DNA from: Burkholderia savannae
GTDB lineage: Bacteria; Pseudomonadota; Gammaproteobacteria; Burkholderiales; Burkholderiaceae
Length of the DNA: 64,000 bases
Assembly: GCF_001524445.2 (NCBI RefSeq)
Contig: NZ_CP013418.1
Span: 2,356,001 to 2,420,000, forward strand
Direction of reading: 5' to 3'
In this document: in pieces, positions 42,906 to 60,694 of the stretch
Position numbering within the stretch: the stretch's first letter is position 1
Layout: each line of letters starts with the position of its first letter
Translations under genes and position numbers: made by a program
Notes under the pieces: model-generated
Told to the model about the DNA's origin: nothing
Databases searched by the model: none
The model's input: the letters and a program-made list of their open reading frames with translations, nothing else

Positions 42906-43667
42906 TTACCCCGGATTGCGCACGTCGGCTGTCGGCGTCGTGCCGAAATCGTCGCTCAGCGCGTAATCGATCAGCTTGCGCGCGGCGTCCTCCGGCGTCG
43001 TGAGCGAGCCGCTCGACTTGAGCTGCTCGAACCGCTCGCGCGACGGAAACCGGTCGCTGCTGCTCGCGCGGATCGTCGTCTGCATGCCGGTGTCCACCAC
43101 GCCCGGCGCGACGCTGCAGATCCGCAGCGCGCGATTCGCATCCAGCGCCACCGCTCGCGCGTGATGATCGAGCGCGGCCTTGGTCGCGCAGTAGACGCTC
43201 CAGCCCGCATATGCGTTGCGCGCCGCGCCGCTCGAGATGTGCACGATGCGGCGCTCGACCGCGTGCGGCGCGATTTTCGCGATCGCGCTCGCGAGCATCA
43301 GCGGCGTCGCGACGTTCAGGGCGACTGCACGCGCGATCGCCGCGGCGTCCTGCGTGTCGAGCGGGCCGATCGGCTCGACGGTGCCCGCGTTGTTGAACAG
43401 CAGCACGCGGCTCGCGCCGGCGACGAACTCGTCGAGCGCGCCGCCGCCGAGCCACGCCTCGATGCGCGCGGGGTCCGACAGATCGAGCTCGGCCTCGACG
43501 AACCGCGCGCCCGCGTGTTCGCCGAGCGACGGATGGCGGCTGCGCGACAGGCCGAGCACTGCGAAGTCCCGCTCAAGCAGTTGCGCGGCGAGGGCGGCGC
43601 CGAGCCCGCGCGTGTGGCCGGTGACGATGGCGCGAACGGCCGGCAAAGGAGAAGAGCGAGTGACCAT
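42906..43667 (-). CDS. Short-chain dehydrogenase/reductase
   Basis: A 253-residue classical SDR with cofactor motif VTGHTRGLGAAL near residue 15, LLFNNAGTVEPIG near residue 90 and catalytic YCATK near residue 160. Resembles sepiapterin-reductase-like SDRs, which reduce small carbonyl compounds with NADPH. The ATG at 43667 (MVTRSSPLP) is preferred, since upstream codons fall in the degenerate repeat region at 43799-43872. It precedes the GltI-like gene. The substrate is unknown. Confidence 0.85.
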   Translation of the reverse strand: MVTRSSPLPAVRAIVTGHTRGLGAALAAQLLERDFAVLGLSRSRHPSLGEHAGARFVEAELDLSDPARIEAWLGGGALDEFVAGASRVLLFNNAGTVEPIGPLDTQDAAAIARAVALNVATPLMLASAIAKIAPHAVERRIVHISSGAARNAYAGWSVYCATKAALDHHARAVALDANRALRICSVAPGVVDTGMQTTIRASSSDRFPSRERFEQLKSSGSLTTPEDAARKLIDYALSDDFGTTPTADVRNPG

Positions 43668-44170
43668 GTCGATTCGGAAAATGACGAGAACAGGATGGGT
43701 GACGTGCGTATCGCGGCACGCAGCGGTGTGCGATCCGCGCGACCGGCGCGCGGTTGCCGATCGGAGCGCGTCGAGCGGCCGACCATTGCGGCCATCCCGA
43801 CGAAAACCGGACGAAAACCGGACGGAAGCGGGACGAAAACCGGACGACAACGCGACGGCAGCCGGACGAGCGACGCGCAGCGCGGCGATCGAATGAGCCG
43901 GTATCGTAACGTCGGCACCAATTTGGCGCAAACGCCGCCTCGTCGATCCGGTTTACCGCGAGATCGCTCGCCTTCGATCAAAGCGCGAGCAATGTCCAAT
44001 GAATTTCGTCACGACATGATTGCATGCTAGCCTTGATCCGGATTCGGCAATGAAATGCCGAATGCGAAACGAAAACGATTCGACGAACCGGACGATGCCG
44101 CGATGCAAGCCGTCGAATGACGGCCGGCAGTTGCCGGATTTTCCCGAGCCATCTTCGATACCTACGCCCG
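43668..44170. other. Divergent spacer with degenerate minisatellite
   Basis: 503 bp between the diverging SDR and NTF2-like genes. It contains the degenerate repeat at 43799-43872. The part from about 43900 to 44100 is less GC-rich and probably carries both promoters. Confidence 0.5.
43799..43872. repeat. Degenerate 10-12-bp tandem repeat
   Basis: Around seven imperfect units based on cggacgaaaac (variants cggacggaag, cgggacgaaaac, cggacgacaa) between two divergent genes. It could influence DNA bending or promoter spacing. Confidence 0.7.
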
Positions 44171-46864: not shown

Positions 46865-47159
46865 CGGCGAGCGGCCCGCCGGATCGAAACGGACGGAAGC
46901 CGGGCGGCGTGCGATGCCGGCACGTCGCCGTCCGGCTTGCGGGCGCGGCGTCGCGCGAGCGTGCGAAGTAAAAGCGCCGTGTTGCACGATGTTTCGCATC
47001 GTTTAGTAAATCTGATAAAAACATTACATCACCCTTCATTTCATTGACGAAGAAACTTCCCGTGTCCTAGTCTTCCAGCACAGTCGAGATTCACGATTGG
47101 CCGTCGACGCGTCGTCGATCGTGCCGCTCGAAAACGAAGCACAAGAACTGGAGACAATC

Positions 47160-50051
47160 ATGAATCGATTCGTCAGGCTGGGCGTCGCGATGGCCGTTGC
47201 TTGCGCGCTCGCGGCTTGTGGAGGGGATGACGGCGGCCCCGCCGCGACGGCGTCCTCGCTGGCCGCGACGGGTGCGAACGGCGCTGCGGCAAACGCGGTG
47301 CAAACGGATGACGCCGTTCGCGCCGTCTCGCTGACCCAATACGTCGACCCGCTGATCGGCACGCTCGCGAGCAATTCGCCGAACCCGGTGCCGGCCGGGC
47401 AGGCGGGCAGCGTGGTGCCGGCGGCGGGCCTGCCGTCGGGCATGGTTCAGTGGGCGCCCGATACGAACACGACGCCCGCGCCCGCCGGCAGCAAGGAGCC
47501 GGGTTCGCCCGCCGGCTACTACTACGACCTGAACTCGATTCAGGGCTTCAGCGTCACGCACATGAGCGGCGCGGGCTGCGCGGGCAACAACGGCGAATTC
47601 CCGGTGATGCCGACCACCGACGCGACGAAGCTCGCGCCGACATTCAGCCATGCGAACGAAACCGCGAAGCCCGGCTATTACTCGGTGCTGCTCGATTCGC
47701 AGATCAAGGTCGAGCTGACGGCGACGCTGCGCACCGGCTTCGGCCGCTTCGCGTATCCCGCCGGCAAGCCCGCGATCCTCGTGCTCGACGCGACGCGCAC
47801 GAACACGAAGGCGTCGACGAGCGGCGCGATCACGCGCGTGTCGTCGAGCGCGATCTCCGGCAGCACGGTGGGCGGCGGCTTCTGCGGCAACTCGGTGCCG
47901 GTGCCCGTGTACTTCTATGCGACGTTCGACCGGCCGTTCGCGTCGACGTCGTCGATCTCGCGCGGCGTGGCGAAGCTCGCGTTCGATTCGGGCGCAACCG
48001 TGCAGATGAAGATCGGGATCTCGTACGTGAGCGTCGACAACGCGAAGGCGAATCTCGACGCCGAGAACAAGACGTGGGATTTCGACGGCGTGCGCGCGCT
48101 CGCCGATGCGGCGTGGAACGAGCGGCTAGGCGCGATCCGCGTGTCGAGCACCGATGCCGACGCGCTGAAGAAGTTCTACACCGCGTTCTATCATGCGCTG
48201 TGGGCGCCGAGCGTGTTCAGCGACGTCAACGGCCAGTACGTCGGTTTCGACAAGCAGGTGCACGCGGTTGCGAATGGCCAGGCCGCTCAGTACTCGAGCT
48301 TCTCCGGCTGGGACATCTATCGCTCGCTGATCCAGCTGAAGGCCGTGCTGTTCCCGCGCGAGACGAGCGACATGATCCAGTCGCTCGTCAACGATGCGGA
48401 CCAGTGCGGCGCGATTCCGCACTGGGTGAACGACAACGTCGAGGACGGCGTGATGCCGGGCGACGCGGGCTCGCTGATGGTGTCGAGCGCGTATGCATTC
48501 GGCGCGCGCAACTTCGACGCGCGCGGCGCGCTCGCGCACATGATCAGGATGGCGAACATTCCCGGCACCGCATGCGCGGGCGTGACGACCAACGGCGGGC
48601 GCGCGAGCTATCTGCAGACGGGCTACATCACGAGCGGCGAGTGGGGCATCGCATCGTCGACGCTCGAATACACGAGCAGCGATTTCGCGATCTCGCGCTT
48701 CGCGGGCGCGATCGGCGACACGGCGACGCAGAAGATGCTGCTCGGGCGCTCGGCGTATTGGCAGAACCTGCTGAACGCGTCGTCGAATCCGCCGCTCGTC
48801 GCCGCGCGTCAGGCGAACGGCGCGTGGATCGCCGAAACGCCGGGCAGCACCGACAATTACGTCGAGGGCAACGCGGAGCAATACACGTGGATGGTGCCGT
48901 ACGATCCCGCGGGCCTTTTCGCGCAGCTCGGCGGCAATCAGGCGGTCGTGCCGCGGCTCGACAAGTTCTTCACGGTGCTCAATGCCGGGATGAGCCTGCC
49001 GAACTTCTACATGGGCAACGAGCCGACGTTCGAAGTGCCGTGGCTGTACAACTGGGCGGGCGCGCCGTCCGGCACGCAGCGCATCGTTCAGCAGATCATG
49101 CAGACGGCGTTCAGCACGCAGCCCGACGGCCTGCCCGGCAACGACGATCTTGGCGCGGTGTCCGGCTGGTACGTGTGGGCCGCGCTCGGTCTGTATCCGC
49201 AGATTCCGGGCGTCGCGGGCTTTGCGATCGGCAGTCCGCAATTCCACGCGATCGACGTGCAGCTCGGCAGCGGCAAGACACTGAAGATTCGCGCGCCGGG
49301 CGCGCCGTCTTCGAATTACGTGCAGAGCGTCAGCGTGAACGGCCGCGCGCAAGCGAGCCCGTGGATCGCGCTCGACGCGCTCGAAGGCGGCGCGGTCATG
49401 CACTTCAAGATGGGCGACGGGCCGTCGCAATGGGGCACGGGCGAGGCGCCGCCGTCGTTCGGCGTGCCGGTTGCGCGCGACGTGGCGGACAGCTTCAACA
49501 ACCGCGGCATCAGCACGGACGGCGCGGCGAACGCCGACGGCCAGGGCGCCGATTTCGACGGCAGCCTGTTCAGTTACTCGGCGGCCGCGCTCGCCCAAGC
49601 GGGCGTGCGGCCCGGCGCGCCGTTCACGTACGGCGGGGCGAGCTTCGTGTTCGGCGGCGGCGCGTCTTCGCTCGACAACGCGGTGACGGTGGGGCAGACC
49701 GTGATGCTGCCGCCGGGCTCCGCAGGCACGAGCGTCGTCGTGCTGGGTGCGTCGAACAACGGCCCGAGCACGGGCGTCGCGCAGTTGCACTTCGCGGACG
49801 GGACGAGCGCGCAGGTCACGCTGTCGTTCGATGACTGGACGCTGAACGGCGGCAGCACGAGCGCGAGGTCGGCGATCGCCGTGACGTCCGCTTATCGCAA
49901 CGCCGGCAACGGGCAGAAAGATAACGTGAAGGCTTACGTTTTCGCGCAGAAAATCCCGCTGCCGGCCGGCAAGGTCGTGACGAGCGTCACGCTGCCGCGG
50001 CAGGTGAGCGCGGGCAAGATGCACGTGTTCGGCATCGGCGTGGCGGCTTGA
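47160..50051 (+). CDS. GH92 alpha-mannosidase lipoprotein
   Basis: A 963-residue lipoprotein. The signal ends in lipobox LAAC with Cys20, so it should be membrane-anchored. The GH92 fold begins YVDPLIGT near residue 62, typical of the family. Further hallmarks are VTHMSGAGCAG, FSGWDIYRSLIQL, YVEGNAEQYTWMVPYD and GNDDLGAVSGWYVWAALGLYP. GH92 enzymes are calcium-dependent exo-alpha-mannosidases that trim N-glycans or mannans. After about residue 770 (DVADSFNNRGIS) comes an extra beta-rich domain that may bind carbohydrate. GGAGACAATC precedes the ATG at 47160. Confidence 0.9.
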   Translation: MNRFVRLGVAMAVACALAACGGDDGGPAATASSLAATGANGAAANAVQTDDAVRAVSLTQYVDPLIGTLASNSPNPVPAGQAGSVVPAAGLPSGMVQWAPDTNTTPAPAGSKEPGSPAGYYYDLNSIQGFSVTHMSGAGCAGNNGEFPVMPTTDATKLAPTFSHANETAKPGYYSVLLDSQIKVELTATLRTGFGRFAYPAGKPAILVLDATRTNTKASTSGAITRVSSSAISGSTVGGGFCGNSVPVPVYFYATFDRPFASTSSISRGVAKLAFDSGATVQMKIGISYVSVDNAKANLDAENKTWDFDGVRALADAAWNERLGAIRVSSTDADALKKFYTAFYHALWAPSVFSDVNGQYVGFDKQVHAVANGQAAQYSSFSGWDIYRSLIQLKAVLFPRETSDMIQSLVNDADQCGAIPHWVNDNVEDGVMPGDAGSLMVSSAYAFGARNFDARGALAHMIRMANIPGTACAGVTTNGGRASYLQTGYITSGEWGIASSTLEYTSSDFAISRFAGAIGDTATQKMLLGRSAYWQNLLNASSNPPLVAARQANGAWIAETPGSTDNYVEGNAEQYTWMVPYDPAGLFAQLGGNQAVVPRLDKFFTVLNAGMSLPNFYMGNEPTFEVPWLYNWAGAPSGTQRIVQQIMQTAFSTQPDGLPGNDDLGAVSGWYVWAALGLYPQIPGVAGFAIGSPQFHAIDVQLGSGKTLKIRAPGAPSSNYVQSVSVNGRAQASPWIALDALEGGAVMHFKMGDGPSQWGTGEAPPSFGVPVARDVADSFNNRGISTDGAANADGQGADFDGSLFSYSAAALAQAGVRPGAPFTYGGASFVFGGGASSLDNAVTVGQTVMLPPGSAGTSVVVLGASNNGPSTGVAQLHFADGTSAQVTLSFDDWTLNGGSTSARSAIAVTSAYRNAGNGQKDNVKAYVFAQKIPLPAGKVVTSVTLPRQVSAGKMHVFGIGVAA

Positions 50052-50362
50052 CATAGGCGCGCGCCATGCCGATGCGTGGCACGCGCTCGATGCATTCTAG
50101 GCGGGCCGGTCGCGGCCCGTGACGTGCGGCGGCGCGTCTTCGCGGACTGCGCCGCCGCATGCCGCTTCGATGAGCGGCGAATTGTCTATTGCGCTTGGCG
50201 AAGAATCGCCACGATCAACGCGCGTTATCTCCTCATTGTTCCCTCCTGGTTTCACGATCGAATATGTCGGGCGGCAATCCGGTGCGTTGCACCGACTGAA
50301 TTTCAATGAAAGTCTCGGCGTTTTAGTTTTCCGATCGACTGATCAAATAATCTACAAAAGAT

Positions 50363-50406
50363 AATCCAATCGGGTCCGTCATAAAAACAAAACACTCGAT
50401 TGGATT
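50363..50406. promoter_or_regulatory. Inverted repeat upstream of isonitrile operon (possible operator)
   Basis: AATCCAATCG (50363-50372) and CGATTGGATT (50397-50406) are perfect 10-bp arms 24 nt apart, about 260 bp before the first gene. It may be a binding site for a dimeric regulator or an RNA stem-loop. Confidence 0.45.
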
Positions 50407-50623
50407 GCGATCTGCAAACACTTCCTCGGCGCTCGCGGAATCGTTTCATGTGACTTTCTGTTGGAAATTTCATTCCTTTGATCAATCGGCTTATCGGCGC
50501 GGATATATCGAATTATTCGCGTACTGTCCGGCTGCATTTTCAATTTAATCGTAAGAAAATTCTCCGAACAGTCATTTCGATTAATGCGTATTTATCGGGT
50601 TTAATGCGAAAAATAGAATCTGC

Positions 50624-50651
50624 CTCGCCATCAACTCATTTGATCAGCGAG
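50624..50651 (+). promoter_or_regulatory. Leader hairpin overlapping the isnA-like ribosome site
   Basis: CTCGC (50624-50628) can pair with GCGAG (50647-50651), and ATCA (50630-50633) with TGAT (50641-50644). The right arm is part of the Shine-Dalgarno GCGAGGT of the gene at 50662, so folding could hide the ribosome site. Confidence 0.35.
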
Positions 50652-50661
50652 GTCGAAATTC

Positions 50662-51720
50662 ATGAGAAACGACCGGAACCACGAGATCGCTCTGGCGATC
50701 CTGGGCGAAATTCTCGAGATTCACCGGCGGTATCCGGAATACACGACGGATTCGGACATCCGTCACGAAATCGAACAGATCCACGCGGTTCAGCTTCCCA
50801 GAATCCGGACGTTCGTCGACGCGGCGCGGCCGGTTCGCTTCGTCCTGCCGGCGTTTCCGTCGAAATCGCCGAATCCGAACAAGGTGCTGGGGCGGCTGCC
50901 GGACATGGCGGAGAAGCTCTCGCTGTCGTTCCTGAACGATCTGTGCGAGCGGATTCGTCGCTTCTACGCACCCGGCGCGACATTGACGATCTGCTCGGAC
51001 GGCCGCGTGTTCGGCGATCTGATTCGCGTCGACGATCGCGACATCACCGCGTACCAGGGCGCGCTGACGCGGATCATCGCGGATCTGCGCGCGGATCATC
51101 TGTCGACGTACAACCTCGAGAACTTCGAGGCGTTTGCGGATCGCACGTCGAATTTCGACGACATGCGGCGGCTGCTCGTCGACGAATTCGCCGACCCGAT
51201 CGATGCGATCAAGCGAAAGCTGACGGGCGAAGAGGAGGGCACGCTGCTGTATCGAGCGATCACGCGCTTCATGTTCGAGGACGGCTTCACGCCCGACTAT
51301 CGCGGCTCGAAAGCCGCGCTGCAGAAAGACTCGAAGACGCGCGCGCTCGGCGTGATCCAGCGTAGCTGGGCGTGGGGCGCGCTCCTCGCCACGCAGTTTC
51401 CGGATGCGATTCGGCTGTCGATCCATCCGCAGCCGGCCGCGAGCCCGAAGATCGGCGTCCACATGATGCCGACGCGCGACAACTGGCTGACGCCGTGGCA
51501 CGGCGTTGCCGTCGACGCCGGCGATCAGTTCGTGCTGATGAAGCGCCGCGACGTCGAGCGGCTCGGCGGCCGCGTCGTGATGCGCGACGCTCGACCGAGT
51601 CACTACGAAATCGAACGTTCGCAGATTGCCTGCGGCGACCTGCTTGCGCTTGCCGTCACGCGCGGCGAACACGCGTCGGCCGATGCCGGCGACAACCTGA
51701 TCATTTCGGAGGCCGTATGA
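50662..51720 (+). CDS. Isocyanide (isonitrile) synthase, PvcA/IsnA family
   Basis: A 352-residue member of the DIT1/PvcA family. The core reads RFVLPAFPSKSPNPNKVLG at 59-77, then LPDMAEKLSLSFLNDLC and ATLTICSDGRVFGDLI. These motifs are shared by PvcA of Pseudomonas and IsnA of Xenorhabdus. The enzyme turns the amino group of tyrosine or tryptophan into an isonitrile using ribulose-5-phosphate as carbon donor. Tyrosine is the likelier substrate here because a phenol hydroxylase follows. GAGGT nine bases before the ATG supports the start. Its stop overlaps the next ATG. First of a six-gene operon. Confidence 0.92.
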   Translation: MRNDRNHEIALAILGEILEIHRRYPEYTTDSDIRHEIEQIHAVQLPRIRTFVDAARPVRFVLPAFPSKSPNPNKVLGRLPDMAEKLSLSFLNDLCERIRRFYAPGATLTICSDGRVFGDLIRVDDRDITAYQGALTRIIADLRADHLSTYNLENFEAFADRTSNFDDMRRLLVDEFADPIDAIKRKLTGEEEGTLLYRAITRFMFEDGFTPDYRGSKAALQKDSKTRALGVIQRSWAWGALLATQFPDAIRLSIHPQPAASPKIGVHMMPTRDNWLTPWHGVAVDAGDQFVLMKRRDVERLGGRVVMRDARPSHYEIERSQIACGDLLALAVTRGEHASADAGDNLIISEAV

Positions 51721-52625
51721 GCGACTTTTTCATGCAGCGGTCGGTATCGCTCGAACCGCTCACGGGCGATGCCGGCGCGCCCTGTTCGTTCGGCGTGCTG
51801 GTGAAGCCGCGCCATGCGCACGTTCACGTCGGCGAGCTGTCGATCGAGTGGCTGCGCGCGCTGGTGCGCGGCCAGCAGCTCGTCGTGCTGCGCGGCTTCG
51901 ACAGTTTCGTCGACGCGGCAAGCATGACGCGCTATTGCGCGACGTTCGGCGAAATCATGATGTGGCCGTTCGGCGCCGTACTCGAGCTGATCGAACAGGC
52001 GAATCCCGCCGATCACGTGTTCGCGAGCAGCTACGTGCCGCTGCATTGGGACGGCATGTATCTGGAGACCGTGCCGGAATTCCAGGTGTTCCAGTGCGTG
52101 CAGGCGATCGGCGAAGCGGACGGCGGGCGCACGACGTTTTCGAGCACGACGCAGGCGCTGCGCGTCGCGACGCCCGAGATGCGCGCGCTCTGGCAGCGCG
52201 CGCACGGCCGCTATCGGCGCACGGTGGAGCTCTACAGCAACACGGTCGAGGCGCCGATCGTCGAGAAGCATCCGCGCCGCGAGTTTCCGGTCTTGCGCTT
52301 CTGCGAGCCGCCGATCGAAGGCGACAGCACGTTCATCAACCCATCGAGCTACGCGTTCGGCGGCATCGCCGAAGACGAGAAGGAGGCGCTGCTCGGCAGC
52401 CTGAAGCGCGCGCTCTACGATCCGCGCGCGCATTACGCGCATCGCTGGCAAACGGGCGACGTCGTGCTCACCGACAACTTCACGCTGCTGCACGGCCGCG
52501 AGAGCTTCACGAGCCGCACCGGCCGCCATTTGCGCCGCGTGCACATCCACGGCGATCCGCCGCTGCGCAATCCGCATCTGTCGAAGCAGCCGCAGCGCGC
52601 GGCGGCCGCCGATGCGGCAGCCTGA
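51717..52625 (+). CDS. Fe(II)/2-oxoglutarate oxygenase, PvcB/IsnB type
   Basis: A 302-residue TauD-family oxygenase. The facial triad is visible as His110-Trp-Asp112 (LHWDG) and His259 (TLLHGRESF), with Arg270 likely binding 2-oxoglutarate. PvcB and IsnB act on isonitrile amino acids, giving a vinyl isonitrile by oxidative decarboxylation or a desaturated acid. The ATG overlaps the isonitrile synthase stop by ATGA, so the pair is translationally coupled, exactly as in known isnAB/pvcAB pairs. Whether it behaves like IsnB or PvcB cannot be told by eye. Confidence 0.92.
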   Translation: MSDFFMQRSVSLEPLTGDAGAPCSFGVLVKPRHAHVHVGELSIEWLRALVRGQQLVVLRGFDSFVDAASMTRYCATFGEIMMWPFGAVLELIEQANPADHVFASSYVPLHWDGMYLETVPEFQVFQCVQAIGEADGGRTTFSSTTQALRVATPEMRALWQRAHGRYRRTVELYSNTVEAPIVEKHPRREFPVLRFCEPPIEGDSTFINPSSYAFGGIAEDEKEALLGSLKRALYDPRAHYAHRWQTGDVVLTDNFTLLHGRESFTSRTGRHLRRVHIHGDPPLRNPHLSKQPQRAAAADAAA

Positions 52626-52650
52626 CCAACTCGTCGACGGAGAGACGACC

Positions 52651-54135
52651 ATGACGTTGATGACCGGAAACGATTATCTCGACAGCCTGCGCGACGGGCG
52701 CAACGTGTATCTCGGCGGCGAACGGATCGCCGACGTCACGTCGCACCGCGCGTTTCGCAACGCGGCGCGCAGCATCGCTTCGCTGTACGACGCGCTGCAC
52801 GGCGAGCATCGCGAGCGGCTGACCGCGCCCGATCGGCACGGGCAGATCACGCACCGCTTCTTCAAGCCGAGCTATTCGGTCGACGATCTGCTGTCGGCGC
52901 AGGACGCGATCGAGCTGTGGTCGAAGATGACCTACGGCTTCATGGGCCGCACGCCCGATTACAAGGCGGCGTTCATGTCGGGGCTCGAGGCGGGCGCCGG
53001 CTATTACGGCGATTTTCGCCAGAACGCGGCCGACTGGTACAAGCGCTTCTCGGGCAGCGGCCTGTATCTGAATCACGCGATCATCAATCCGCCGCTCGAT
53101 CGCAGCAAGGCGATTCACGACATGCGCGACGTGTTCGTGCACGTCGTCGACGAGACCGATCGAGGCATCGTGGTGAGCGGCGTGAAGATGCTCGCGACCG
53201 CCGGCGCGCTGACCAACGCGACGTTCGTCGCGCCCGTCGCGTCGGCGCTGCTCGAGCCCGGCAAGGCGGACGACTTCGCCGTCGTGTTCTTCGCGCGAAT
53301 GGACAACCCGGGCCTGAGCCTGATGTGCCGGCCGTCGTACGAGGCCGCCGCGACGAGCCCGTTCGACGCGCCGCTGTCGAGCCGCTTCGACGAGAACGAC
53401 GCCGTGCTGATCTTCGATCGCGCGTTGATCCCGTGGGAAGACGTGCTCGTCTATCGCGACGTGAAGCGCGCGACCGGCTTCTACGCGGCGTCGGGCTTCG
53501 CGAATCTCTACAACTTCCAATCCGGCATCCGGCTCGCGGTGAAGCTGGAGCTGATGATCGGGCTGTTGTCGCTCGGCACGCAGGCGAACGGCACGCAGCA
53601 GTTCCGCGGGATTCAGGCGGCGCTCGGCGAGCTGATTTCGCTCCGGCATCTGCTGAAGGCGATCACGTCCGCGATGGCGCACGATCCGGATCGCACGCAG
53701 GCGGGCGTCGTCGTGCCGAAGCTCCAGTACGCGTCGGCGCTGCGCATCCAGGTGCCGCAGATCTGGAAGCGCGTGCGCGAGCTGATGGAAACCGCGCTCG
53801 GCGGCTCGCCGCTCGTCACCGTGTCAGGCGCGGCGGACTTGCTCGATCCGCAGGTGAAGGGGCTGATCGATGCGTACTACCGCGGCGCGGCGCTCGAGCC
53901 GGAGCAGCGGATCAAGCTCTTCAAGCTGATCTGGGACGCGACGGGCAGCGAGTTCGGCTCGCGTCATTCGGTCTACGAAACGCATTACTCCGGCAATTTC
54001 GACCAGATACGCCTCGACTCGCTGACGTGGGCGACCCGGTTCGGCCAGCTCGCCGATTGCGAAGCGTTCGCGCAGCGCTGCATGGACGACTACGACGCGT
54101 CGGGCTGGTCGCGCGGCCCGTGGCTGCACGACTGA
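52651..54135 (+). CDS. FADH2-dependent aromatic hydroxylase (HpaB/PvcC family)
   Basis: A 494-residue flavin monooxygenase of the 4-hydroxyphenylacetate 3-hydroxylase group. Typical segments include MTGNDYLDSLRDGRNVYLGGERIADVTSH at the N-terminus, SYEAAATSPFDAPLSSRFDENDAVLIFD in the middle and YYRGAALEPEQRIKLFKLIWD near the end. It adds an ortho hydroxyl to a phenol, giving a catechol, and needs a separate flavin reductase (HpaC), which is not encoded nearby. PvcC in the Pseudomonas pvc cluster has the same fold and position. GGAGAGACGACC precedes the ATG at 52651. Confidence 0.9.
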   Translation: MTLMTGNDYLDSLRDGRNVYLGGERIADVTSHRAFRNAARSIASLYDALHGEHRERLTAPDRHGQITHRFFKPSYSVDDLLSAQDAIELWSKMTYGFMGRTPDYKAAFMSGLEAGAGYYGDFRQNAADWYKRFSGSGLYLNHAIINPPLDRSKAIHDMRDVFVHVVDETDRGIVVSGVKMLATAGALTNATFVAPVASALLEPGKADDFAVVFFARMDNPGLSLMCRPSYEAAATSPFDAPLSSRFDENDAVLIFDRALIPWEDVLVYRDVKRATGFYAASGFANLYNFQSGIRLAVKLELMIGLLSLGTQANGTQQFRGIQAALGELISLRHLLKAITSAMAHDPDRTQAGVVVPKLQYASALRIQVPQIWKRVRELMETALGGSPLVTVSGAADLLDPQVKGLIDAYYRGAALEPEQRIKLFKLIWDATGSEFGSRHSVYETHYSGNFDQIRLDSLTWATRFGQLADCEAFAQRCMDDYDASGWSRGPWLHD

Positions 54136-54178
54136 ATCGCCCCGTCGATCCCTATCGTTTCAACTCAAAGGAGCAGCT

Positions 54179-56047
54179 ATGTGCGGTATCACTGGATGGG
54201 TCGACTTCGGCCGCGATCTGCGCAACGAAGCGCGGATCGTCGACGAGATGACCGATACGCTCGCGCGCCGCGGGCCGGACGCGCGCGGCGTGTGGCTCGA
54301 CAAGCACGTTGCGCTGGGGCACCGGCGCTTGTCGATCATCGATCTCGAGCGCGGCACGCAGCCGATGCTCAGCCCTGAGCGTGGCCCGCGCGATCTGCCG
54401 CGTGCGGCGATCTCGTATGCGGGCGAAACCTACAATTTTCGCGAGCTGCGCGCCGAGCTGGGCGCGCTCGGCCACCGGTTCGGCACGCATTGCGACACCG
54501 AGGTCGTGTTGCGCGCGTATCTCGAATGGGGCGCGGCGTTCGTCGATCGCCTCAACGGGATGTATTCGATCGCGATCTGGGACACCGCGCGCGACGAGCT
54601 GCTGCTCGTTCGCGACCGGCTCGGCGTGAAGCCGCTGTTCTACTACCCGACGGCGGACGGCGTGATCTTCGGTTCGGAGCCGAAGGCGATTCTCGCGCAT
54701 CCCGACGTGCGTGCGCGCACGTCGTCCGAAGGGCTGTGCGATGCGCTGCTGTTCCTGCGCACGCCGGGGCAGGTGCCGTTCTCCGGCATGCGCGAGCTGA
54801 AGCCCGGTCATCTGCTGCGCGTGCGGCGCGGCGGCATCGTCGAAGAGCGTTACTGGGCGCTCGAGGCGCGCCCGCACACCGACGACCTGCCGACGACGAT
54901 CGCGACGATCCGCTCGCTGCTCGACGACATCGTGTCGCGCCAGATGATCTCCGACGTGCCGCTGTGCGCGCTGCTGTCGGGCGGCGTCGATTCGAGCACC
55001 GTCGCCGCGCTCGCGCAGAAGCAGCGGCGCGCGAACGGCGGCGGCGCGTTGTCGACGTTCTGCGTCGACTTCACGGGCCACACGCGGAACTTCCAGGCCG
55101 ACCCGATTCGCCCGACCGCCGATGCGCCGTTTGCGCTCGAAGTGGCGCGACACATCGGCAGCGACCATCACACGATCGAGCTGAACCAGGATGGGCTGCT
55201 CGATCCCCAGGTGCGCGAAACGGTGCTGCGCGCGTGGGATCTGCCGTTCAACTTCGCCGATCTCGACGTGTCGCTGTATCGGCTGTTCGCGCAGGTGCGC
55301 AAGCACGCGAGCGTCGCGCTGTCGGGCGAGGCAGCCGACGAAATCTTCGGCGGCTACCTGTGGTTCTCCGATCCGGGCGCGCGTCGCGCCGAGACGTTCC
55401 CGTGGCTCAAGCTCGGCGCGCATCGCGGGCTCGATCCGCGCGCGCTGTTCCATCGATGGTTCATCGACGATCTGAAGCTCGGCGAATACGAAGCGGACCT
55501 GTACCGCGCGGCGCTCGCCGAAGTGCCGCGCCTCGACGGCGAAAACGCGGAGGACCGCCGCACGCGCGAGCTGCACTACCTGACGCTCACGCGCTGGCTG
55601 CCGGTGCTGCTCGACAAGAAGGACCGGATGGGAATGGCGAGCGGCCTCGAAGGGCGCGTGCCGTTCTGTGACCACCGGCTCGTCGAGTACGTGTTCAACA
55701 TCCCGTGGTCGATGAAAACGTTCAACGGCCAGGAGAAGGCGCTGCTGCGCGCGGCCGCCGCCGATCTGCTGCCCGAATCGGTGCTGAACCGCAAGAAGGC
55801 GGCGTATCCGTCGATTCAGGCGCCGGGCTACGACCGCGGCCTCATCGACCGCCTGAACCGGGCGATCGACGCCGGCCGCGCGCCGCTCAAGCCGTTCATC
55901 GACGCCGACGCGCTGCGCAATCTGACCGCGAGGACCGCGGCCGGAAGCCTTTCGGAATTCGAACGAATCCTGCTCGAATCGAGCAGCCGGCTCAACCACT
56001 GGCTCGATCTCTATCGGGTCGAAATCGACGGCGTGACGGCCGGTTGA
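54179..56047 (+). CDS. Glutamine-dependent asparagine-synthetase homologue (AsnB family)
   Basis: A 622-residue two-domain amidotransferase. The N-terminal class II glutaminase begins with the nucleophile Cys2 (MCGITGWVDF). The C-terminal synthase domain has the ATP PP-loop LLSGGVDSSTVAALA near residue 265. Where AsnB usually has NGE at the glutaminase oxyanion hole, this protein has AGE (residues 81-83), a change also seen in some AsnB-like proteins. It may amidate a carboxyl or couple an amine in the pathway rather than make asparagine. AAAGGAGCAGCT precedes the ATG. Confidence 0.88.
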   Translation: MCGITGWVDFGRDLRNEARIVDEMTDTLARRGPDARGVWLDKHVALGHRRLSIIDLERGTQPMLSPERGPRDLPRAAISYAGETYNFRELRAELGALGHRFGTHCDTEVVLRAYLEWGAAFVDRLNGMYSIAIWDTARDELLLVRDRLGVKPLFYYPTADGVIFGSEPKAILAHPDVRARTSSEGLCDALLFLRTPGQVPFSGMRELKPGHLLRVRRGGIVEERYWALEARPHTDDLPTTIATIRSLLDDIVSRQMISDVPLCALLSGGVDSSTVAALAQKQRRANGGGALSTFCVDFTGHTRNFQADPIRPTADAPFALEVARHIGSDHHTIELNQDGLLDPQVRETVLRAWDLPFNFADLDVSLYRLFAQVRKHASVALSGEAADEIFGGYLWFSDPGARRAETFPWLKLGAHRGLDPRALFHRWFIDDLKLGEYEADLYRAALAEVPRLDGENAEDRRTRELHYLTLTRWLPVLLDKKDRMGMASGLEGRVPFCDHRLVEYVFNIPWSMKTFNGQEKALLRAAAADLLPESVLNRKKAAYPSIQAPGYDRGLIDRLNRAIDAGRAPLKPFIDADALRNLTARTAAGSLSEFERILLESSSRLNHWLDLYRVEIDGVTAG

Positions 56048-56082
56048 GTCGTCGACGAACATTTCATTTGGAGAGCGTATCA

Positions 56083-57054
56083 ATGCAAGCAATCGAGATT
56101 CGCGAGACGGGCGGCCCGGACGTCCTCGACTACGTGACGCGCGCCGAGCGTGATCCCGGCGAGGGCGAGGTGCTCGTCGAGCTCGCCGCGGCGGGCGTGA
56201 ACTTCATCGACCTGTATCGCCGCGAGGGCCGATATCCGATGCCGCTGCCCGGCACGCCGGGCGAAGAGGGCGCGGGGCGCGTGCTGGCGGTCGGCCCGAA
56301 CGTCAAGCGGTTCAAGCCGGGCGAGCGCGTCGCATGGACGACCGTGATGGGCAGCTACGCGACGCGCGTGATCGTGCCCGAGGACAAGGCGATCGTCGTG
56401 CCGGACGGGATCGATCTGCGGACGGCCGCCGCCGCGCTCGTGCAAGGGATGACCGCGCACTATCTCGTCCACGATTCGTACCGCGCACGCGAAGGCGACG
56501 TCGTGCTCGTCCACGCGGCGGCGGGCGGCGTCGGGCTGCTTCTGACGCAGTGGCTGAAGCGGCGCGGCGCGCGGGTGATCGGCACGGTGTCGACCGAAGA
56601 GAAGGCGGCGCTTGCGCGCAGCAACGGCGCGGACGACGTGATCCTGCATCACGCGCGCGACGAACTCGCCGCCGAAGTGCGCCGGCTGACGGACGGCAAG
56701 GGCGTGCACGCGGTGTACGACGGCATCGGCGCCGCGACGTTCGACGCGAGCCTCGCGAGCCTCAGGACGCGCGGCACGCTCGTGATCTTCGGCGGCGCGA
56801 GCGGCCCTGTGCCGCCCGTCGACGTGATGCGGCTGCTGTGGGGCGGCTCGCTCACGCTGACGCGCCCGTATCTCGAGCACTTCCGCGCGACCGTCGACGA
56901 ATTCCTGTGGCGCGCGGGCGAAGTGTTCGACGGCATCCTGAACGATACGCTGAAGATCCGGATCGGCGGCACTTATCCGCTTGCCGAAGCGCGTCGCGCG
57001 CACGCGGATCTCGCGGCGCGCAAGACGACCGGCAAGCTCCTGCTCGTGCCGTGA
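56083..57054 (+). CDS. NADPH:quinone oxidoreductase (zinc-less MDR)
   Basis: A 323-residue medium-chain reductase. The N-terminal domain reads MQAIEIRETGGPDVLDYV, and the NADPH-binding motif is VHAAAGGVGLLLTQW near residue 147, as in QOR (zeta-crystallin) enzymes. Zinc-ligand cysteines are absent. It may reduce a quinone or enone produced by the HpaB-like enzyme or the dioxygenase. TTTGGAGAGCG lies before the ATG, 35 bp after the AsnB gene. Part of the isonitrile operon by spacing and direction. Confidence 0.88.
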   Translation: MQAIEIRETGGPDVLDYVTRAERDPGEGEVLVELAAAGVNFIDLYRREGRYPMPLPGTPGEEGAGRVLAVGPNVKRFKPGERVAWTTVMGSYATRVIVPEDKAIVVPDGIDLRTAAAALVQGMTAHYLVHDSYRAREGDVVLVHAAAGGVGLLLTQWLKRRGARVIGTVSTEEKAALARSNGADDVILHHARDELAAEVRRLTDGKGVHAVYDGIGAATFDASLASLRTRGTLVIFGGASGPVPPVDVMRLLWGGSLTLTRPYLEHFRATVDEFLWRAGEVFDGILNDTLKIRIGGTYPLAEARRAHADLAARKTTGKLLLVP

Positions 57055-57112
57055 CGCCGTTTCGTTTCGCCCGCTCACTCACTCATTCATTCATTGAACA
57101 GGATGCCTATCT

Positions 57113-58030
57113 ATGGGAAAGATCATCGGCGCCGGCCTGATCTCGCACGCGCCCGTCGTGATGATGTCGGAGGCGACGCGGCTTCGCGAGAACGGCGGCC
57201 GCGATTTCACGCTCGCAACGGGCCTGATGCGGTTGCGGCGCGACGTGTTCGATGCCGACGACTACGATACCGTGCTCGTCTTCGATAGCCACTGGCGAAC
57301 GACGACCGAGGCGGTCGTCACATCGCACGCGCGGCGCGAGGGCCGCTTCACGTCGGACGAGATGCCGAACGCGATCCGGCAGTTGCCTTACGATCTCGCC
57401 GGCGATCCCGAGCTCGCGCACGCGATCGCCGAACTGGCGCCGCGGCGCGCGTCGTGGATCGCCGCGGTCGACGATCCGTGTTTGCCGATTCATTACGCGA
57501 CGCTCAATCCGTGGACCTACCTCGGCCGGCCCGACAGGCGCTGGCTTTCCGTCTCCGTGTGCCAGACCGCGACCGCCGGCGATTTTCTGCGAATGGGCGA
57601 GATCGTCGCGGAAGCGATCGGGCGGCTCGAGCGCAACGTGTTGCTGGTCGCGTCGGGCGGACTGTCGCACGTGTTCTGGCCGCTCGCCGAGCTGCGCAAC
57701 CGGATGGCGGGTGCCGCATCGAACATCGTGACGCCTGCGGCGCGCGCAGCCGACGAGCGGCGGATCGCGTGGCTCGAAGAAGGGCGGCACGACCGGGTGA
57801 TCGACGCGATGCCGGAATTCCTGCGTTTCAATCCGGAAGCGAACTTCGGCCACTATCTGATGATGGCGGGCGCGATCGGCGCGCGCGCGTGCGTGGCGCG
57901 GGGGCGACGCTTCGGCGAGTACGAGAACGGGATCGGCACCGGTCACGTTCACTTGTGGTTCAGCCCGGCAGACGGCAGTTGGACGCAGACTGCGGCAACG
58001 CAGCGCGCTCGGAAAGCGGCGAGCGCATGA
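57113..58030 (+). CDS. Class III extradiol catechol dioxygenase (LigB family)
   Basis: A 305-residue dioxygenase of the LigB/HpcB/MhpB type. Candidate Fe ligands are His12 (LISHAPVV) and His60 (VFDSHW), with a further acid/base His in VASGGLSHVFW. GHYLMMAGAIGA lies near the end. It opens a catechol ring next to the two hydroxyls with O2, giving a hydroxymuconic semialdehyde that may cyclise with a nearby amine. As last gene of the isonitrile operon, it follows the catechol-forming HpaB-like step. The alternative role, breakdown of a dihydroxyphenylacetate-like compound, is less likely in this context. Confidence 0.87.
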   Translation: MGKIIGAGLISHAPVVMMSEATRLRENGGRDFTLATGLMRLRRDVFDADDYDTVLVFDSHWRTTTEAVVTSHARREGRFTSDEMPNAIRQLPYDLAGDPELAHAIAELAPRRASWIAAVDDPCLPIHYATLNPWTYLGRPDRRWLSVSVCQTATAGDFLRMGEIVAEAIGRLERNVLLVASGGLSHVFWPLAELRNRMAGAASNIVTPAARAADERRIAWLEEGRHDRVIDAMPEFLRFNPEANFGHYLMMAGAIGARACVARGRRFGEYENGIGTGHVHLWFSPADGSWTQTAATQRARKAASA

Positions 58031-58182: not shown

Positions 58183-58217
58183 CGCCCGACGCCCGACGCC
58201 CGACGCCCGACGCCCGA
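58183..58217. repeat. Heptanucleotide tandem repeat cgcccga, 5 units
   Basis: Five perfect 7-bp units followed by a diverged copy (cgcccgg), directly next to the second heptamer array at 58223. Confidence 0.95.
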
Positions 58218-58222
58218 CGCCC

Positions 58223-58299
58223 GGCAAGCGGCAAGCGGCAAGCGGCAAGCGGCAAGCGGCAAGCGGCAAGCGGCAAGCGGCAAGCGGCAAGCGGCAAGC
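58223..58299. repeat. Heptanucleotide tandem repeat ggcaagc, 11 units
   Basis: Eleven perfect 7-bp copies. Located 56 bp after the LysR stop on the minus strand and 193 bp after the dioxygenase stop. A typical variable-number repeat of pseudomallei-group genomes. Confidence 0.97.
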
Positions 58300-58354
58300 G
58301 GGCGAACATCGTCGCAAGCGCCGTGTCGCGCGAAGCGGCCGTTCGGGCTCGCCG

Positions 58355-59293
58355 TTAGACCGGAATCGCGCCCGTGTACGTCTGCTCGCCGGGCAAGCGG
58401 GCCAGATACGCCTGGACCGCGCCGAGGAACAGACGCTCGCGAACCGATGCGTGCCGCGGTGACGTGCGAAACGCATAGATGCCGCCTTTGGGCATCGTCC
58501 ATGTCGGCAGCAGCCGATGCAGACGTCCTTCCCGCAAGTCTTCGGCCACCAGATAGTCGGGAAACGCGGTGATGCCCGCGCCCGCGAGCGCCATCTGATG
58601 CGCGAGCAGCACGCTCTTCACCTTCAGGCGGCCGTTCGTCTGAATCCGGACCGAGCGGCCGCCGTTGCCGAACACCGAATAGCTGAGATTCGCGAGCCCG
58701 CCGTGCCCGATCCAGTGCGAACCGGGCAGATCGTCGGGATGCCGGGGCACCGCGTGCCTGCGCGAATACTCGGTAGATGCGACGAGCACTTGGTCGAACG
58801 CGCCGAGCATCTTCATCCGGAAACCTTTCTTCTTCGGCCACCCCGTTTCGAACGCGAGATCGATGCGTTCGCCGACCAGGTCGATTTCAGCATCGTTGCA
58901 GACGATCTCGAGCTCGATCTGCGGATGCTGGTGAATGAAGGTTGCCGCGATCGAGCTCAGATGCGCGGTGGAAAAGCCGCTCGGCGCAGCGACGCGCAGC
59001 AGGCCGGTCGATTCGTGGCGCAGGCACCGGATGCTGCCGATCACGTCGTGAAGGCCGCTCACGAACTCCTGGGAGGCCGAATACAGTTTGTTGCCGGCGT
59101 CGGTCGGCGCGATCCTGCGGGTGCTGCGCATCACGAGCTGTGTGTCGATCTCGGCTTCGAGACGACTCAGGTATTCGCTGACCAGCGACTTCGACATGCT
59201 CAAGCACTCCGCTGCCGCGGTGAAACTACCCTTCTCGACAATCGTCATGAAAACGCGCAGGTGATTCAAATTTCTTATCCCCACCTCGGACAT
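58355..59293 (-). CDS. LysR-family transcriptional regulator
   Basis: A 312-residue LysR protein with N-terminal helix-turn-helix FMTIVEKGSFTAAAECLSMSKSLVSEYLSRLEAEIDTQL and an effector domain like those of the CrgA/DsdC-type group. The ATG at 59293 (MSEVGIRN) has GAGGTGG five bases upstream; the frame runs on to 59506 without family features. It is convergent with the isonitrile operon and could control it in trans, but its divergent side faces a 1.4-kb gene-free region, so its target is uncertain. Confidence 0.9.
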   Translation of the reverse strand: MSEVGIRNLNHLRVFMTIVEKGSFTAAAECLSMSKSLVSEYLSRLEAEIDTQLVMRSTRRIAPTDAGNKLYSASQEFVSGLHDVIGSIRCLRHESTGLLRVAAPSGFSTAHLSSIAATFIHQHPQIELEIVCNDAEIDLVGERIDLAFETGWPKKKGFRMKMLGAFDQVLVASTEYSRRHAVPRHPDDLPGSHWIGHGGLANLSYSVFGNGGRSVRIQTNGRLKVKSVLLAHQMALAGAGITAFPDYLVAEDLREGRLHRLLPTWTMPKGGIYAFRTSPRHASVRERLFLGAVQAYLARLPGEQTYTGAIPV

Positions 59294-60416: not shown

Positions 60417-60465
60417 GTAGTCAGTAGTCAGTAGTCAGTAGTCAGTAGTCAGTAGTCAGTAGTCA
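60417..60465. repeat. Heptanucleotide tandem repeat gtagtca, 7 units
   Basis: Seven perfect 7-bp copies followed by two degenerate ones (to 60479). Located about 215 bp after the stop of the minus-strand hydrolase. Confidence 0.97.
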
Positions 60466-60694
60466 GCAGCTAGCAGTCAGCGGCTCGTGGCATGCGGCAC
60501 GCGGCACACAACCGCACAGCCACGGAGTTGCGCAGCCGGTGCGCGAACGTCATGGATTCGCGCGATGCCCTGCCGCACGGCGTACCCATGCGGCAAAACG
60601 GCGGCATGGCGCGCGCACGTCTCATGATGTGCTCATCCGCAACCGCAACCGCATCTGCCGGCGTTCGCGTTCGCATCCGCATCCGCGTCGACCG

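What the first reader, a model, noticed from the sequence alone, without database searches (positions are those of the whole stretch)
50662..58030. Six-gene isonitrile cluster: pvcABC-like core plus asparagine synthetase, quinone reductase and extradiol dioxygenase
The first three genes match the PvcA, PvcB and PvcC families in the same order as in the Pseudomonas pvc cluster. The next three are not part of that cluster as I know it. All six run in one direction with overlaps or gaps of at most 58 bp. The set implies a tyrosine-derived isonitrile that is desaturated, hydroxylated to a catechol, ring-opened and amidated or amine-coupled. I know of no described product with this set of enzymes.
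Basis: partly seen in the sequence, partly recalled or inferred. Interest (0 to 1): 0.85.

Follow-up and report, generated by a model that had tools for sequence, protein, structure and literature searches.

The report
Isonitrile operon with ring-opening genes
This soil bacterium carries a six-gene assembly line that probably turns the amino acid tyrosine into a reactive isonitrile, then opens its ring and adds an amide; the same line is kept intact in some related bacteria, but I saw no description of its product.

Summary
The six genes are real, closely packed and on one strand (50662-58030). Gene 2 has both residues reported for isocyanoacrylate-forming (PvcB-type) desaturases. Gene 6 is a LigB-type extradiol dioxygenase whose predicted fold is closest to 3,4-dihydroxyphenylacetate 2,3-dioxygenase. 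Genes 1-6 plus LysR keep the same order in all five genomes that carry a close gene 6: this one, three other Burkholderia and one Paraburkholderia. Two papers list a B. pseudomallei 'isonitrile' cluster, probably this locus, without a product in the passages I read. Against a simple 'new pvc cluster': close relatives of genes 4 and 6 share contigs in Streptomyces and other bacteria for which no close PvcA was listed, so genes 4-6 look like an older ring-opening/amidation module joined to pvcABC-like genes. Best reading: tyrosine -> isocyanoacrylate -> catechol, then amidation and ring cleavage beside the side chain. A 3-isocyano-2-pyridone is my boldest product guess. The pathway is inferred; no chemistry was shown.

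The parts
50562..50621 (+). Conserved upstream element: dyad CGAA-N7-TTCG (50565-50579), then TTTATC-17-TAGAAT (50591-50596 / 50614-50619) as a candidate weak promoter; proposed LysR site and operon promoter
   Evidence: Best ungapped match to the window per 20-bp block in G021/G038/G042/Paraburkholderia: 17/17/17/15, then 16/16/16/11, then 16/12/12/14, against a background mean of 8.9 and maximum of 14 (alignment). A 33-bp pattern from it has exactly 1 site in the own genome with up to 3 mismatches. The generic sigma-70 scan found nothing at its threshold here.
50662..51720 (+). gene 1: L-tyrosine isonitrile (isocyanide) synthase, PvcA-like
   Evidence: PF05141 275.5 bits over cut-off; PDB best PvcA 3e59, 429.6 bits; NCBIfam TyIsonSynPvcA 446.9 bits, under its cut-off of 600
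51717..52625 (+). gene 2: Fe/2-oxoglutarate desaturase of PvcB type (isocyanoacrylate-forming predicted)
   Evidence: PF02668; PvcB 3eat 412 bits against 233 for 7tcl, the vinyl-forming type; Leu and Cys at the two selectivity positions (PMC9467999 section 12)
52612..54135 (+). gene 3: FADH2-dependent aromatic hydroxylase, HpaB/PvcC-like; start may be the ATG at 52651; needs a flavin reductase from elsewhere
   Evidence: PF11794+PF03241; HpaB structures 460 bits; three flavin-reductase-family matches elsewhere in the genome; start codon not conserved in 2 of 5 loci
54179..56047 (+). gene 4: glutamine-dependent AsnB-like amidotransferase/amide synthetase
   Evidence: TIGR01536 493 bits over cut-off 267.1; N-terminal MCGITGW and SGGVDS loop in the sequence; best PDB 7ylz, named hydroxyamidotransferase, 581.6 bits
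56083..57054 (+). gene 5: NADPH quinone/enone reductase of the medium-chain (zeta-crystallin-like) family
   Evidence: PF08240, PF00107, PF13602; PRK10754 NADPH:quinone reductase 271.6 bits, under cut-off 348
57113..58030 (+). gene 6: class III (LigB-type) extradiol ring-cleaving dioxygenase, HpaD-like
58355..59293 (-). LysR-type regulator, convergent with the operon (start at the ATG before SEVGIRNLNH)
   Evidence: PF00126+PF03466; 71-92% identical orthologue at the same place and orientation in all 4 other loci

Best explanation
A single LysR-controlled operon for a tyrosine-derived isonitrile secondary metabolite. Gene 1 converts the amino group of L-tyrosine to an isonitrile; gene 2 desaturates the side chain to the isocyanoacrylate and keeps the carboxylate; gene 3 hydroxylates the ring to a catechol; gene 4 converts a carboxylate to a primary amide; gene 6 opens the catechol by extradiol cleavage next to the side chain (2,3, proximal); gene 5 reduces a conjugated C=C of the opened product. 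Genes 4 (with 5) and 6 are an older ring-opening/amidation module that was joined to pvcABC-like genes. Sequence supports the identity of each enzyme family, gene 2's reaction type, the conservation of the unit and an upstream element. The substrates, the order of genes 3-6, the role of LysR and the final product are inferred.
Confidence: 0.68

Rival explanations
1. A paerucumarin-like pathway: genes 1-3 make the catechol isocyanoacrylate, which closes to an isonitrile coumarin, while genes 4-6 only tailor, detoxify or recycle it (a shunt or self-protection branch).
For: Genes 1-3 are in pvcABC order; gene 2 is PvcB-type and keeps the carboxylate needed for a coumarin. Other Burkholderia have pvcAB with an FAD monooxygenase, closer to a pvcD arrangement as recalled. 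PMC12831694 (passages) reports paerucumarin among metabolites of another species, B. contaminans, by untargeted metabolomics.
Against: No FAD monooxygenase among the six genes or the flanking ORFs scanned; the rest of the genome was not searched for one. Genes 4-6 are present in 5 of 5 loci.
Confidence: 0.15
2. A catabolic operon for a phenylpropanoid or aromatic amine, with genes 1-2 recruited for another purpose.
For: Distant relatives of gene 6 sit in catabolic-looking clusters: with aldehyde dehydrogenase, FAA hydrolase and HpcH aldolase (L052; two neighbours of L054 also scanned), or with glutamine-synthetase-like, aldehyde dehydrogenase and FAA hydrolase genes. L053 and L055 were not scanned.
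Against: None of those downstream genes is in this operon or among the flanking ORFs scanned; isocyanide synthase and PvcB-type desaturase are biosynthetic; the catabolic relatives are only 36-57% identical.
Confidence: 0.07
3. Two adjacent functions: an isonitrile unit (1-3) and an independent module (4-6) that share a promoter but not a product.
For: Close relatives of genes 4 and 6 share contigs for which no close PvcA was listed; in the gene 4 tree the Burkholderia/Pseudomonas clade lies inside a clade made mostly of gene-6-linked sequences.
Against: Gene order is kept in 5 of 5 loci across two genera, with one upstream element; gene 3 gives the catechol that gene 6 needs; a Pseudomonas gene 4 and a PvcA share a chromosome length, and another such pair a 5,025-bp contig length.
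Confidence: 0.1

Closest known systems
pvcABCD / paerucumarin cluster of Pseudomonas aeruginosa
   Same: PvcA-, PvcB- and HpaB-family genes in the same order; PvcB-type desaturase; nearest PDB relatives are its PvcA and PvcB
   Different: No pvcD-type FAD monooxygenase in the operon; three extra genes (amidotransferase, reductase, extradiol dioxygenase) and a convergent LysR gene. The pvc gene content is recalled; gene 3 was not compared with PvcC itself.
B. pseudomallei BGC 'cluster 7 (isonitrile)', II0180/II0181; BPSS0160 'putative Isonitrile'
   Same: Very probably the same locus in a sister species: B. pseudomallei proteins 84% (gene 1) and 92% (gene 4) identical are listed; named in PMC9040570 and PMC9821509 (passages)
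   Different: Those passages name it only as isonitrile; I saw no gene-by-gene description or product there. I did not match the loci by sequence.
rhabduscin / isnAB-type vinyl isonitrile clusters
   Same: Isocyanide synthase followed by an Fe/2OG desaturase
   Different: Gene 2 here has Leu and Cys where that type has Lys/Arg and Asn/His (PMC9467999)
Cyclopentenyl isonitriles of Trichoderma (dermadin, trichoviridin; recalled, no call describes their biosynthesis)
   Same: As I recall, tyrosine-derived isonitriles for which opening and contraction of the aromatic ring has been proposed
   Different: Fungal; I saw no gene cluster for them. A ring contraction after cleavage is a further possible outcome here.
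Streptomyces plasmid clusters with isocyanide synthase + P450 + AsnB-like gene + MFS and iron ABC transporter (hazimycin-like; that name is recalled)
   Same: Isocyanide synthase two genes from an AsnB-like amidotransferase
   Different: No annotated desaturase, HpaB-type hydroxylase or extradiol dioxygenase within about 10 kb there; their AsnB is a very distant branch from gene 4 (branch 1.8)
Homoprotocatechuate (hpa) meta-cleavage pathway
   Same: HpaB-family hydroxylase and HpaD-type class III extradiol dioxygenase
   Different: None of the downstream catabolic genes in the operon; HpaB and HpaD equivalog cut-offs not reached

Membership tests
Isocyanide synthase (PvcA/IsnA/Dit1) | PF05141 match over the curated cut-off | tested here: met
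   275.5 bits, cut-off 26.4
L-tyrosine isonitrile synthase PvcA (NCBIfam equivalog NF045653) | score at or over 600 bits | tested here: not met
   446.9 bits; so tyrosine is the likely but unproven substrate
PvcB-type (isocyanoacrylate-forming) Fe/2OG desaturase | Leu at PIsnB K107 and Cys at PIsnB N188 | tested here: met
   HWDGMY-L and RF-C-EPP aligned to PIsnB K and N (rule from PMC9467999 section 12)
PvcB-type desaturase | His-Asp-His iron ligands | tested here: met
   aligned to PIsnB H101, D103, H250
pvcABCD paerucumarin cluster | FAD monooxygenase (PvcD) in the operon (gene content recalled) | tested here: not met
   None among the six genes or the flanking ORFs scanned; not filed as a pvc cluster
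HpaB/PvcC two-component hydroxylase | HpaB_N and HpaB domains | tested here: met
   Arg/Tyr in MGRTPDYKA and His in LNHAI aligned with HpaB; that these are active-site residues is recalled
HpaB equivalog (TIGR02310) | score over 885.2 | tested here: not met
   524.2 bits
Glutamine-hydrolysing AsnB-like synthetase | TIGR01536 over cut-off, N-terminal Cys, SGGVDS loop | tested here: met
   493 against 267.1 bits; sequence. The acceptor is not testable here.
Class III (LigB) extradiol dioxygenase | LigB fold with two His and one Glu metal ligands | tested here: met
   fold; H12, H60, E242 invariant in the 41 sequences aligned; assignment as ligands by alignment to 3vsg and recall
HpaD (TIGR02298) 3,4-dihydroxyphenylacetate dioxygenase | score over 315.95 | tested here: not met
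   124.6 bits
Any isonitrile pathway | product contains an isonitrile derived from tyrosine | not testable with these tools
   needs chemistry

The most novel reading that the evidence does not exclude
Genes 4 and 6 form a pyridone-building module. Gene 4 amidates the isocyanoacrylate carboxylate; gene 6 cleaves the catechol next to the side chain, so the ortho carbon becomes an aldehyde; the new amide nitrogen condenses with that aldehyde to give a 3-isocyano-2-pyridone carrying a 2-oxobutenoate arm, which gene 5 reduces. It is the nitrogen counterpart of the coumarin closure in paerucumarin, using the same cis geometry. It would also explain why genes 4 and 6 are kept together in bacteria without a close PvcA: there the module would make pyridones from other catechol acids. 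Predicted neutral masses: 218.033 (C10H6N2O4) and 220.048 (C10H8N2O4) after reduction (masses). Entirely inferred from enzyme families.
Probability: 0.18. Interest if true: 0.82.

Novelty: new variant of a known kind. Interest (0 to 1): 0.55.

Why it matters
The bacterial isonitrile pathways that I know of decorate or dimerise the aromatic ring (recalled); ring opening has, as I recall, been proposed only for Trichoderma isonitriles, and I saw no genes for it. If the reading holds, a compact operon conserved in the B. pseudomallei complex and in Paraburkholderia makes an uncharacterised, probably metal-binding metabolite, and the recurring gene 4/gene 6 pair marks a widespread ring-opening/amidation module that simple annotation files under catabolism or asparagine synthesis. 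Each step can be tested with six enzymes and tyrosine.

Tried and rejected
Rejected: chance ORFs (families, selection and synteny exclude it); gene 5 from the GTG at 55705; plain pvc/paerucumarin membership (no FAD monooxygenase in the operon); plain hpa catabolism (no downstream genes); decarboxylating (vinyl isonitrile) gene 2; gene 4 as a close relative of the isocyanide-synthase-linked AsnB of Streptomyces plasmids (very distant in the tree; the tool warned that long branches meet there). On re-check I also withdrew my statement that the 14-bp overlap of genes 2 and 3 is conserved: it has a start codon in 3 of 5 loci.

Led nowhere: two scans of viral contigs for gene 6 found no relative. 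A search of 369 sampled class-level genomes with gene 4 at E 1e-180 found, besides the window's own genome, only a 53% relative; the same 369 with PF05141 gave 4 hits, own included. 398 genomes of the family of G563 gave no gene 4 match at E 1e-230, a threshold that also excludes G563's own 53% match, and the tool notes that an empty answer shows nothing (that this family is Pseudomonadaceae is my inference from an OprF match). Plasmid searches reached no relative of gene 6 over 57.2% or of gene 4 over 53.7%, so the Streptomyces neighbourhoods of the 70-77% relatives could not be read. That those bacteria lack a close PvcA rests on a 120-row list that ends near 48% identity. Contig-length coincidences were picked by eye and show closeness only for the 10 contigs under 25 kb. 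Two further coincidences between the gene 1 list and the other lists (2,809 and 2,900 bp) come from different sources and I take them as chance. The generic promoter scan was empty. DOPA-type 4,5-cleavage is not excluded by a fold comparison.

Papers: 10 searches and the six papers opened (PMC9467999 sections; PMC9040570, PMC12831694, PMC13005658, PMC9821509, PMC7042699 by passages) showed no description of this six-gene set. Three papers that might hold one were not held: Biggins 2011 and 2014 and the Klaus 2020 review. I therefore cannot say that the product is undescribed.
Full report
What is there. Six + strand genes occupy 50662-58030 with junctions of -4, -14, +43, +35 and +58 bp if the longest frames are taken. 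Pfam gives PvcA-type isocyanide synthase, TauD-family Fe/2OG oxygenase, HpaB-family hydroxylase, AsnB-like synthetase, medium-chain quinone/enone reductase and LigB-type extradiol dioxygenase, all over the curated cut-offs. Downstream, a LysR gene runs towards the operon (58355-59293, -). In the stretch upstream of gene 1 (50055-50661) G+C falls to 50%, against 67% for the cluster.

The host. The window lies on contig 2 of a 7.43-Mb, 3-contig genome. Its PvcA is 99% identical to one named from Burkholderia sp. MSMB617WGS, then 90% B. oklahomensis, 88% B. thailandensis and B. mayonis, 84% B. pseudomallei, 75% B. singularis, and 66-73% several Paraburkholderia. The nearest named gene 6 is 87%, B. 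thailandensis; the nearest named gene 4 is 92%, B. pseudomallei. So this is a member of the B. pseudomallei complex, not necessarily B. pseudomallei itself.

Conserved unit. PF05141 occurs in 10 of 65 Burkholderia genomes, own included. Gene 6 has relatives of at least 76% identity in 5 of 398 sampled family genomes: G000, G021, G038, G042 and G368; the next best is 41%. G368's stretch is the locus of Paraburkholderia sp. BL21I4N1. All five have genes 1-6 in the same order plus LysR in the same orientation. The ATGA overlap of genes 1 and 2 is the same in all five; the gene 2/gene 3 overlap is not (start codon in 3 of 5). Of window ORFs of 90 aa or more from 36000 on, those beyond the unit match only in the close relative G021, apart from a short-chain dehydrogenase (42906-43931) that also matches near the G038 and G042 loci, and distant LysR paralogues there. 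dN/dS is at most 0.30 in the 21 comparisons made (seven genes, three loci).

Regulation. At -100 to -41 from gene 1 the DNA is conserved in three 20-bp blocks: 17, 17, 17 and 15 of 20 positions in G021, G038, G042 and the Paraburkholderia locus, then 16, 16, 16 and 11, then 16, 12, 12 and 14; the background averages 8.9 with a maximum of 14. Only the first block stands above the background maximum in all four. It holds a CGAA-N7-TTCG dyad, imperfect in the Paraburkholderia copy; TTTATC-17-TAGAAT follows. A 33-bp pattern from this stretch has one site in the whole genome. A LysR-activated promoter with a poor -35 box is my inference; the generic scan did not call it.

The evidence that changes the picture. 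In a database of 5.8 billion proteins the best named relatives of gene 4 and gene 6 outside Burkholderia and Paraburkholderia are Streptomyces (up to 77% and 72%), with Pseudomonas for gene 4 (76%) and several MAGs; some closer metagenome entries have no name (120 rows shown of each). None of these 10 lengths is in the 120-row list for gene 1, which reaches down to about 48% identity. In a 57-row tree (52 of the 120 listed gene 4 proteins, the window's own and four plasmid rows), Burkholderia and Pseudomonas gene 4 form one clade (100/100) inside a clade (100/100) of 44 rows that holds all 29 gene-6-linked rows put in; its exact place among the Streptomyces rows is weakly supported (80/93). 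So genes 4 and 6 look like an old pair joined to pvcABC-like genes. One metagenome protein joins gene 4 (to residue 547) to the end of gene 5, which suggests that gene 5 belongs to the pair. For two PvcA entries (a Pseudomonas synxantha chromosome length and a 5,025-bp contig) the lengths coincide with gene 4 entries, so Pseudomonas may have a related cluster; I could not fetch it.

More distant relatives of gene 6 (36-57%) sit in catabolic-looking neighbourhoods where I looked. Elsewhere, an isocyanide synthase is found near a different, distant AsnB in Streptomyces plasmids, so amidation in isonitrile clusters has arisen more than once, or the pair diverged long ago.

Mechanism. Supported by sequence: enzyme families, gene 2 type, gene 6 fold class, co-conservation. 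Inferred: tyrosine -> 2-isocyano-tyrosine acid -> isocyanoacrylate -> catechol -> amide and ring-opened product, then reduction by gene 5. Amidation would also stop coumarin closure and stabilise a reactive acid. My boldest reading is that the amide nitrogen closes onto the new aldehyde to form a 3-isocyano-2-pyridone (masses in the novel case); the geometry is that of coumarin closure, with nitrogen in place of oxygen. A ring contraction like that proposed for Trichoderma isonitriles (recalled) is another possible end.

What is known. Two papers name a B. pseudomallei isonitrile cluster (PMC9040570: cluster 7, II0180/II0181, lower at 37 than at 28 C and lower in the II2523 mutant; PMC9821509: BPSS0160 putative isonitrile), read as passages. 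I saw no product. The papers most likely to hold one were not available. I therefore call it a new variant of a known kind, and not a new discovery of the locus.

Noticed in passing
58183-58301: Perfect 7-bp tandem repeats between gene 6 and LysR: 5.9 copies of CGCCCGA, then 11.4 copies of CGGCAAG; looks like a variable-number locus.
   Followed up: partly
60417-60466: 7.1 perfect copies of the 7-bp repeat GTAGTCA.
   Followed up: no
L019, L020 (G059, G062): Other Burkholderia have pvcA-pvcB (about 50% identical) followed by an FAD_binding_3 aromatic hydroxylase and a small protein with no Pfam match: a different isonitrile cluster in the genus.
   Followed up: partly
L013 (G059), L012/L014 (G049): Open frames of 759 and 619 aa match PvcA and, next to it, PvcB at 26-30%: possibly a fused isocyanide synthase-desaturase, next to a second PvcA.
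   Followed up: no
L061-L063 (Streptomyces plasmids): Isocyanide synthase + P450 + AsnB-like gene + MFS + iron-type ABC transporter on linear plasmids, possibly a hazimycin-like cluster (name recalled).
   Followed up: partly
L056-L058: Gene 6 relatives (50-57%) with glutamine-synthetase-like, aldehyde dehydrogenase, FAA hydrolase and acetoacetate-decarboxylase-family genes on plasmids: perhaps gamma-glutamylated aryl-amine catabolism.
   Followed up: no
47097-50051: Glycosyl hydrolase family 92 protein just upstream of the operon; part of it is shared with G021 only.
   Followed up: no
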